The position numbers were made by a program, and so were the translations under genes. From the NCBI GenBank assembly GCA_964036195.1, contig OZ038458.1:9561832-9625831 (forward strand): a stretch of DNA of 64,000 nucleotides, written 5' to 3'. The notes below the pieces were generated by a model. The model did not search any database, had not been told where the DNA came from, and saw only the letters and a list, made by a program, of their open reading frames with translations. The DNA comes from Sphaerolaimus hirsutus. Its lineage: Eukaryota > Nematoda > Chromadorea > Monhysterida > Sphaerolaimidae. Below are positions 334 to 3,300 of the stretch, one piece after another; within the stretch, counting starts at the first letter, position 1; each line of letters starts with the position of its first letter.

Positions 334-3300
334 CTCCGGATAGAAATAGTAGTTGCCCCTGATGATCTGTCTGTACAACCTGGTCCTGTTCGTGTCGTCG
401 AACGGCATCAAACCGGACAGCAAAATGTAGGTGATCACGCCGACCGCCCACAGATCCACCTTATTATTGTACGGGAAGCGCATCAACACCTCGGGGGCGA
501 TGTACTCCGGCGTGCCGCAGGTGTCGGCCATCAATTCCTCGTCTGGGGGCAGTCCCAGACCCTGTAAAGTGTAAAGTAAGGTGTCAAATGTCATGTAAAA
601 TGTCAATCAAAACAAAAAAAGGTTAAGATTTGATTAGTTAACGTTGCATGACAATTGACAGTTTACTTTACATTTGTGATGACAATTGACACTTTGCATG
701 ACATTTTACATGACATTTGACACTTCACATTACACTTTCCAGCGTCTGGGATTGGCACCTGGCCTGCAAGTGCGCGCCTGATGCGCCAGGCCGAAGTCGG
801 TGATGAGCAGCCGGCCGTCGGCGCCCGGCTCGGAGAAGAGCAGGTTCTCGGGCTTGAGGTCGCGGTGCGTCACGCCCAGCGAGTGCAGGTAGGCCACGCC
901 GCACAGCAGCATGCGGCAGCACCAGATCGTCTCCGGCTCGGTGAAGCGACCTGTGCCACTAGAGTGGGTGAGCAGATTTTCGAACGGAAGATAGAAATTA
1001 GCAGTGAATTTTTATTTGCCAGGTAAACGCGAAGGTGTTGTGAATTAGTTACGTCACTTTTACAGCACAAAAATATAAGAGGAAGGAAATTAGCCCGCCA
1101 TAAAAACATATGCTGAGAACGCCAGATCAACTGAAACAATTCGAAAAGCGTTGATTTATTGCCAACTGACGACGCCGAATGAATCAATGTTTGTATGTAT
1201 TGACTTGGCAGAAACATGCACTTTTCGATAATCGAAGGAAAGCCGCGTGCTTTCAGCCCGTCCCCAAGTGACCAGCCCCGCAGATTTAGTTACAGGTGAA
1301 ATCCATTGTAAAAAGTCGGTGCTATTTAATGCAGCATTTACTCAACGTCACAACTGCACCATGTAGACAGAACCATGCAGTGCTTGCACAGACATTTGAC
1401 ACAATTATGCGCAGCTCTGGCAGAACGACAATCCGGCGCCCATCCGCCTTCATGACGCCCGGCTACAGCGGCAATTCGGTGCCCCGTCGCAGGTCCCTGT
1501 CCGTGGCGCAGCGGGGCGGCCGCTCCACCCCCCGCACGCCGCGCCGCACAACGGCAGGACTCTTCTGGCTGGACGAGCCCTACGCGACGCCGCGGCACAC
1601 ACTAAACACCAGCAGACGAGCCAGAGAAAATGCCAGGTACATTCCACACTGCATTGTTGTCACCGGCGCTAAGATGCCGCAGACACATTCGCACTGGAAT
1701 TCCAGCCGCAGCATCGCTGCCAAGCAGGCGACTTATGTGCCGCACGCGCTCGCCGTCGGCTGGCTGCTGGGCAGGGGCAAGACGGCCGGCGACGCGCCGC
1801 CCCTGATGTCGGAGCTGTTCGCTCCGGCGAGCGACGCGTTGGACGCCGACCTCCCCCAGTGGCAGATCACCAGGCTGGCGCGCGGCGGCGTGCGCACAGT
1901 GGGCGACCTGCTCGCGCTGTACATGCTGTGGGACCAAGACGTGCGCCGCCTCGGCATGTCAGTCGGACGCAGTGCGGGAGAGTTCCAGCTTAGTGTTAAC
2001 ACAAATGCGGCACTAAAACGAATATTGGAACAAGTGTCTCAAGGTGGAACTCGGTTCTAGTGGCAATTTCATACCTTGGTAGCCGATAACAGCAGTCCAG
2101 TGACAGGAAACTGTACACGGATGACATTTCGTCAATCAGACGTGAAAAATACCTGTCGAACTTAAATACTTACCACCTACTACGTAACTCATCACTTATA
2201 ACTAGGGTGTCAAATTTCCGTTTTCCGTTTCCGTAGGCAAAGTTTTTCCGTTTTCCGTTCGTTTTCCGGCTGCTGAAATTGTTTTTCCGTTTTCCGTTCC
2301 GTTTTCCGGCAACTTTTTTTTCTGTTCCCGTTTTTCCGCCTTTTTTTCATTTTCCGCCTCAATTTTCCATTTTTCCGCCCCAATTTTCCTTTTTCTGGCT
2401 CAAATTTCTGTTTTCTGTTTTCAGCCAAACTGGTAAAATTCATGCAGATTGTCAATGATGTAAAAAAATTTCTGTTTCCAGCAAAATAACTGCAAATTTT
2501 TTCCAGTTCCAGCAAAATTTCAGCAAATTTTATCTGTTTTCCGGCAAAGTTTTTCCATTTCCGTGCAAATTTGATTTTTCCGTTTCCGTTTTTCCGGCCG
2601 CTGAAATTTTTTTTCCGTTTCCGTAACCGTTTTCCGCCAAGTGCAAATTTTTTTCCGTTTTCCGTTCCGTTTTCCGGCCGCTGAAAAAAATTTCCATTTC
2701 CGTTTTCCGTAAAAAAAATTTTTTGACACCCTACTTATAACCGTCATCTTCACTTGAGAAGCTGCAGCATTGACCCACCAGGAATTATTTTCCCGGCAAA
2801 TGCCCCACATATTTACAGTTTCGTCGAGGAACTACTGGGGCAGAAAATTATGACAGAGTCTATGAGTATCGTGCTGCGCGACAACATGGAGACGTTGGCG
2901 CGGGACTACCTCAAACTTTAGGTTGCAGCGACAGGCCTGCACGGACCCTAGACTACTAGAACACAACACAATATCAACTGAGAAACCTACGTGACTAATA
3001 CTATAACAAACCAGTGACTTATTAGTGATGTGAATGCGCCTTGGAAAATATTTATGAATGTAAATATCACTGTGAAAATCGTAAAAATTGTTTCTAAAGC
3101 TGGTTTATCCACTTTATCAGTTGAAGAATTTCTGAAGAAATGAAAGCAAATATGCTATGCAAGTTACTGTCGAAATTCAATACGCTCAGTTCGATCAGTT
3201 CGATCACTGAATAAGTCCACGCTAAAAGTCGATATGTCTTGTGGCGATTTAGAAAAAACAGTGAGAAACTCCACACTGAATAAGTCCAGAAGTTGCCATA

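What the first reader, a model, noticed from the sequence alone, without database searches (positions are those of the whole stretch)
543..758. A transposon copy is exactly one intron of the PSKH1-like kinase
The intron between DFG and TCGTPEY has inverted-repeat ends that double as splice sites: donor GTGCCAATCCCAGACGC and acceptor TCTGGGACTGCCCCCAG. Nothing is left over on either side, and excision gives a kinase of normal spacing. Similar sequence occurs elsewhere in the window as an ordinary repeat. This is the signature of an introner, a mobile element that creates introns.
Basis: partly seen in the sequence, partly recalled or inferred. Interest (0 to 1): 0.92.

Follow-up and report, generated by a model that had tools for sequence, protein, structure and literature searches.

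The report
Hairpin transposon that makes new introns
In an animal genome, probably a roundworm's, copies of a small mobile DNA hairpin sit in a protein kinase gene so exactly that each whole copy appears to be one intron, which suggests that this mobile element makes new introns.

Summary
543-758 (minus strand) is one complete copy of a roughly 200 bp inverted-repeat element whose two ends are splice sites. A six-exon, 384-codon model of the PSKH1-type kinase runs through it in frame. Four further copies lie in the window; I recognised no exons at their edges. Relatives appear to lack the intron: 116 of 208 compared proteins run across this point and leave homology at the next conserved junction, four of them in the nematode clade of a kinase tree. 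Both introns fold into full-length hairpins (z -10.6 and -17.1; an ordinary intron of the gene gives +0.9). Best reading: a non-autonomous DNA transposon inserts at CAG, duplicates it, carries the 5' splice site (GT) in one repeat and takes its 3' splice site from the duplicated CAG. The CWG-like duplication and GG-type B ends suggest the NuwaI group of PHIS transposons (PMC4482050), unproven without a transposase. Introners are known; this would be a new family. No RNA data; the own-genome search did not complete (21 tries).

The parts
543..758 (-). Element copy c1 = intron 5 of the kinase gene (216 nt), including the right-hand CAG (543-545)
742..758 (-). A end with the 5' splice site: CAG|GTGCCAATCCCAGACGC
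543..559 (-). B end with the 3' splice site: TCTGGGACTGCCCCCAG|
759..761 (-). Left CAG: last three bases of exon 5, matching the CAG at 543-545 (putative 3 bp target duplication)
564..568 (-). Branch-site-like TTTAC, its A 23 nt from the intron end and unpaired in the fold (motif recalled, function inferred)
11840..12031 (-). Element copy c2 = intron 1 of the same gene model (192 nt)
12032..12162 (-). Kinase exon 1 (MGGRLSKSGS...)
11738..11839 (-). Kinase exon 2 (supported by frame and phase only)
4506..4783 (-). Kinase exon 3 (...YDVCEVIGR)
3961..4200 (-). Kinase exon 4 (GSFSTVYQ...)
759..950 (-). Kinase exon 5 (HRDLKPEN...[13 protein letters not shown])
334..542 (-). Kinase exon 6 ([14 protein letters not shown]...); the gene runs off the low end of the window
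34484..34611 (+). Element copy c3: A end present, B end lost (end approximate)
53609..53816 (+). Element copy c4, nested in an older copy of the same family (stub 53571-53608, remains from 53817)
58705..58862 (-). Element copy c5 (boundaries approximate)
62183..62283 (+). Element copy c6, diverged (boundaries approximate)

Best explanation
543-758 is an introner: a non-autonomous, hairpin-shaped DNA transposon (MITE) that inserted into a coding exon and is removed as an intron at its own ends. Proposed steps: (1) a transposase supplied in trans cuts at a CAG (CWG) target and duplicates 3 bp [inferred; CAG flanks both ends of both intronic copies]. (2) The left CAG becomes the last three bases of the upstream exon and the element's A end supplies GT, giving CAG|GTGCC. 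(3) The right CAG becomes the 3' splice site, so removal restores the pre-insertion coding sequence [frame shown; splicing inferred]. (4) Pairing of the arms brings the two splice sites together and buries nearby internal AGs, leaving the last AG exposed [computed fold; function inferred]. It should work in one orientation only, because only the A end has GT.
For: Both ends of both intronic copies coincide with splice sites of one gene model whose phases all fit. Relatives: 116 of 208 compared proteins cross the site and leave homology at the next conserved junction, 93 of them into a V (a GTN codon), as genomic ORFs reading into a donor would; four fall in the nematode clade. Full-length hairpins, z -10.55 and -17.05, 0 of 200 shuffles each; control intron 3 z +0.92. 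GTGCC at 5 of 6 A ends, including copies outside recognised exons. c4 nested in an older copy gives a paralogous empty site. Near the 3' end only the last AG is unpaired, and a YTNAY motif sits at -23 in both.
Against: No RNA evidence. For c2, 16 GT-AG pairs keep the ORF open, so frame alone does not choose its ends; for c1, four other pairs do. The +2 residues against the common spacing are unexplained. c2 also has an unpaired AG at -96 and its -23 branch-like A is paired. c4's right flank reads CCG, not CAG; c5 and c6 fit a 3 bp duplication only with a chosen boundary. Five of the 116 proteins have 8-21 extra residues between DFG and APE. That the 116 are genomic ORFs is inferred from their tails, not from their DNA.
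Confidence: 0.85

Rival explanations
1. The element is spliced from inside: donor AAA|GTGTAATG and acceptor TTTACAG|GG, keeping both inverted repeats in the mRNA as 14 extra codons. It would still be a transposon-made intron, but with exonised ends.
For: This pair keeps the c1 ORF open, and TTTACAG is a plausible acceptor. Introners that add codons are known (PMC9860276, section 4).
Against: The DFGL-CGTPEY spacer would be 31 residues, against 13-25 in 196 relatives. In c2 the same splice meets an in-frame stop (sequence; pair absent from the list). The -19 AG is paired in both folds.
Confidence: 0.06
2. An old intron stood here first and a repeat inserted into it later, replacing nearly all of it.
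For: Repeats often lie in introns, and intron 4 of this gene is 3010 nt long.
Against: Nothing is left on either side in two separate introns; 116 of 208 relatives' proteins cross the c1 position.
Confidence: 0.04
3. The element spreads through RNA, by reverse splicing of a spliced-out intron, as proposed for fungal introners.
For: Two copies are exact introns; fungal families have been read this way (PMC9860276, section 4).
Against: Full-length inverted repeats, CAG on both sides of c1 and c2, copies without recognised exons at their edges, and one copy nested in another point to DNA transposition.
Confidence: 0.03

Closest known systems
Introners with DNA-transposon features (Gozashti et al. 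2022, PMC9860276)
   Same: Similar introns matching to the splice sites, with inverted repeats and/or target duplications. Chrysochromulina introners carry the 5' splice site and take the 3' one from the duplication, the logic proposed here (Fig. 2C legend).
   Different: Those have 4 bp duplications and no inverted repeats. The survey found introners in only two animal groups, and its main text does not contain 'nematod'; its supplement was not seen.
Introners of Micromonas and Aureococcus (Huff et al. 2016; recalled, paper not held)
   Same: Inverted-repeat DNA elements whose insertion duplicates part of a splice site (recalled).
   Different: Algal hosts; no sequence comparison was made here.
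NuwaI group of PHIS transposons (PMC4482050, sections 5 and 7)
   Same: CWG target duplication, first bases of the inverted repeats usually GGG, found in animals.
   Different: Here a non-autonomous element; one end begins GTG; no transposase seen; host group not among the 16 genomes listed there (fish, beetle, crustacean, mollusc, anthozoan).
Mirtrons (recalled)
   Same: Introns that are hairpins with splice sites at the stem base.
   Different: Two to three times longer than I recall for mirtrons and repeat-derived; no small-RNA evidence.

Membership tests
Introner | Similar introns whose similarity reaches the splice sites at both ends | tested here: met
   c1 and c2, two introns of one gene model
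Introner | Intron absent at the site in relatives (gain) | tested here: met
   protein level only: 116 of 208 cross the c1 site, 4 in the nematode clade; no relative's DNA seen. For the c2 site only P0002 and P0137 were seen to run unbroken from MGC to the kinase domain
Introner | Several intron copies in the genome (families of 5 to over 2,000 in PMC9860276) | not tested
   two seen in the window; own-genome search unanswered, 21 tries
Introner | Spliced in RNA | not testable with these tools
   no RNA data
MITE (non-autonomous inverted-repeat DNA transposon) | Short, inverted repeats, several dispersed copies, no transposase gene | tested here: met
   six copies, arms aligned; c1 and c2 are 216 and 192 nt, no transposase domain in the frames scanned
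NuwaI / PHIS | 3 bp CWG target duplication | tested here: inconclusive
   CAG/CAG at c1 and c2; CAG/CCG at c4 by empty site; c5 CAA and c6 CTG only with a chosen boundary; c3 lacks its B end
NuwaI / PHIS | Inverted repeats usually beginning GGG | tested here: inconclusive
   B ends GGGG (c1, c4), GGAG (c2), GGTG (stub); c5 and c6 diverged; A ends GTG
NuwaI / PHIS | DDE transposase and Myb/SANT ORF in an autonomous partner | not tested
   none in the window frames scanned; genome search unanswered
Mirtron | Excised hairpin processed to small RNA | not testable with these tools
   hairpin computed; no small-RNA data

The most novel reading that the evidence does not exclude
Transposons that duplicate CAG/CTG are ready-made introners: the duplicated CAG is at once the exon end and the 3' splice site, so a G-to-T change at the second base of one inverted repeat (GG to GT) completes a working intron. 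In this probably nematode-type lineage such a hairpin family, at about one copy per 11 kb in this window, has been creating introns on a genome scale, with the hairpin itself defining the splice sites.
Probability: 0.4. Interest if true: 0.82.

Novelty: new member of a known kind. Interest (0 to 1): 0.66.

Why it matters
Where new introns come from is a long-standing question, and the 2022 survey found introners in only two animal groups (PMC9860276). This case offers two exact introns in one gene, matching copies outside recognised exons, a paralogous empty site, and an explicit short route from an ordinary CWG transposon to an intron maker. The route predicts that other CWG-duplicating transposon families should also yield introns, which can be checked in existing genomes.

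Tried and rejected
Rejected as less likely: secondary insertion into an old intron, RNA-borne spread, internal splicing (see rivals). c4 at first seemed to show a 5 bp GTCAG duplication; its paralogous empty site indicates that this is chance. The weak GT43-like exon beside c4 could not be extended by motif search, so I do not claim that c4 lies in an intron of that gene. No tRNA or Rfam match at the default thresholds and no transposase domain in the frames scanned (the low 900 bases of the minus strand only through two ORFs). Exact end patterns gave 0 matches in viral contigs and genome contigs, where an animal element is not expected. The organism could not be named: the kinase falls among nematodes (18-row clade, 99/100) but on a long branch, with a long-branch warning. 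Literature: a search for 'introner' from 2023 listed 24 papers; judged by title and abstract start only, none is a report of nematode introners. 'introner' + 'nematode' + 'intron gain' gave 9 papers, of which I saw passages of PMC9169325 and PMC3443670. Passages only of PMC12595863, PMC12124190 and PMC13326754. Searches were too broad to help. A 2025 PNAS introner survey is recalled but not held.

Full report
What is there. BLAST of this stretch against the window finds further copies, and a profile of the arms resolves six elements: c1 543-758, c2 11840-12031, c3 from 34484, c4 53609-53816, c5 58705-58862 and c6 62183-62283, plus remains of an older copy around c4. That is about one copy per 11 kb of this window.

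The gene. Pfam finds a protein kinase domain in pieces on the minus strand. Six exons join to 384 codons with fitting phases: 12032-12162, 11738-11839, 4506-4783, 3961-4200, 759-950 and 334-542. Against solved structures the best match is CaMK1D (E 6.9e-51). In the protein database it matches PSKH1 kinases; the named hits with the highest identity are nematode ones (Trichinella 62%, Enterobius 61%). In one search two longer algal proteins outrank them by E-value, at 39-42% identity. Exon 1 starts MGGRLSKSGS, like MGCPLSKSDS of P0002. Exon 2 is supported only by frame and phase. The gene runs off the low end of the window.

Two introns are whole elements. Intron 5 is c1 and intron 1 is c2. Both have CAG|GTGCC at the donor side and CCCAG| at the acceptor side. 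Of the GT-AG pairs tried near the ends, 5 keep the ORF open for c1, and only the exact ends change no codon; 16 do for c2, so frame alone does not decide c2. The serious alternative for c1 keeps both repeats and adds 14 codons; it would make the DFGL-CGTPEY spacer 31 residues, against 13-25 in 196 relatives (exact excision: 17). The same splice in c2 meets a stop.

The intron looks derived. I compared the 209 fetched relatives with mouse PSKH1. These are the listed tops of two capped searches, and the first search admitted only proteins of limited length, which favours cut-off ORFs. Of 208 usable, 92 continue past the conserved GE|PW junction and 116 leave homology there; 93 of the 116 tails begin with V, as expected if a genomic ORF reads into a GTN donor, and 23 do not, several of them named isoforms or partial records. 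All 116 pass the c1 position; 111 have -4 to +4 residues between DFG and APE relative to mouse, and five have 8 to 21 extra. Four of the 116 (P0002, P0005, P0011, P0137) fall with 12 named nematodes, one further unnamed-species protein and the query in an 18-row clade of a 40-row tree (99/100; the query's branch is long and the program warns of long-branch attraction with P0011). P0011 starts where exon 4 starts, so it may share intron 3 while lacking intron 5 (inference). P0002 and P0137 run unbroken from MGC into the kinase domain, so they also lack an intron corresponding to c2.

How the element is built. A ends begin GTGCC in 5 of 6 copies, c6 being diverged. B ends, read inward, are GGGGC (c1, c4), GGAGC (c2) and GGTGC (the stub); c5 and c6 are diverged and c3 has lost its B end. 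The A and B repeats of c1 agree at 12 of 15 positions, the second base being T against G (read). So GT is a family feature of one end, present also in copies where I recognised no exons. CAG stands on both sides of c1 and c2. c3 and c4 also have CAG at the A side. Joining the flanks of c4 at the best-scoring point restores the older element it landed in without a gap at the joint; the three bases in the place of the right copy now read CCG, so the duplication length is not fixed by this site alone. c5 (CAA) and c6 (CTG) fit a 3 bp duplication only with a chosen boundary.

Structure. The two introns fold with z -10.55 and -17.05, none of 200 shuffles reaching them; the ordinary 305-nt intron 3 gives z +0.92, 81 of 100 shuffles folding at least as well. 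In both introns the internal AGs within 95 nt of the end are paired, the last AG is free, and a YTNAY motif has its A 23 nt from the end (unpaired in c1, paired in c2); c2 also has an unpaired AG at -96 in the apical loop. The hairpin may hide wrong acceptors and bring the ends together; that is inference.

What it is. By the working definition in PMC9860276 (section 4 read; abstract and passages) this behaves as an introner: similar introns matched to the splice sites, transposon features, and absence in relatives. It is closest in logic to introners that carry the 5' splice site and recruit the 3' one from the target duplication. The CWG-like duplication and GG-type B ends point to NuwaI in the PHIS superfamily (PMC4482050: sections 5 and 7 and passages). 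No transposase was found in the window frames scanned, so this is a lead and not an assignment.

Limits. Novelty statements rest on searches of the held open-access library only.

Noticed in passing
window 1290-2057 (+): A 256-residue open frame lies antisense inside kinase intron 4 (951-3960); its end resembles the RIF1 C-terminus from memory only; PDB sequence search gave no hit at E up to 1.
   Followed up: partly
window about 60650-60930 (-): NUDIX-domain exon (Pfam E 6.6e-09; located by motif), NUDT18-like from memory.
   Followed up: partly
window 53224-53511 (+): GC-rich open frame with a weak GT43 glycosyltransferase match below the curated cut-off (E 0.014); motif search found no continuation in the window.
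   Followed up: partly
window 53571-53845 (+): c4 is inserted in an older copy of its own family, giving a paralogous empty site.
   Followed up: yes
window 2200-2730: Long degenerate run of TTTTCCGTTTTCCG-type repeats.
   Followed up: no
window 1-280, 58870-58900, 62285-62330: A second repeat with the motif CCGTATTTCCTCGAA / TATTCGAGG lies beside c5 and c6 and at the start of the window.
   Followed up: no
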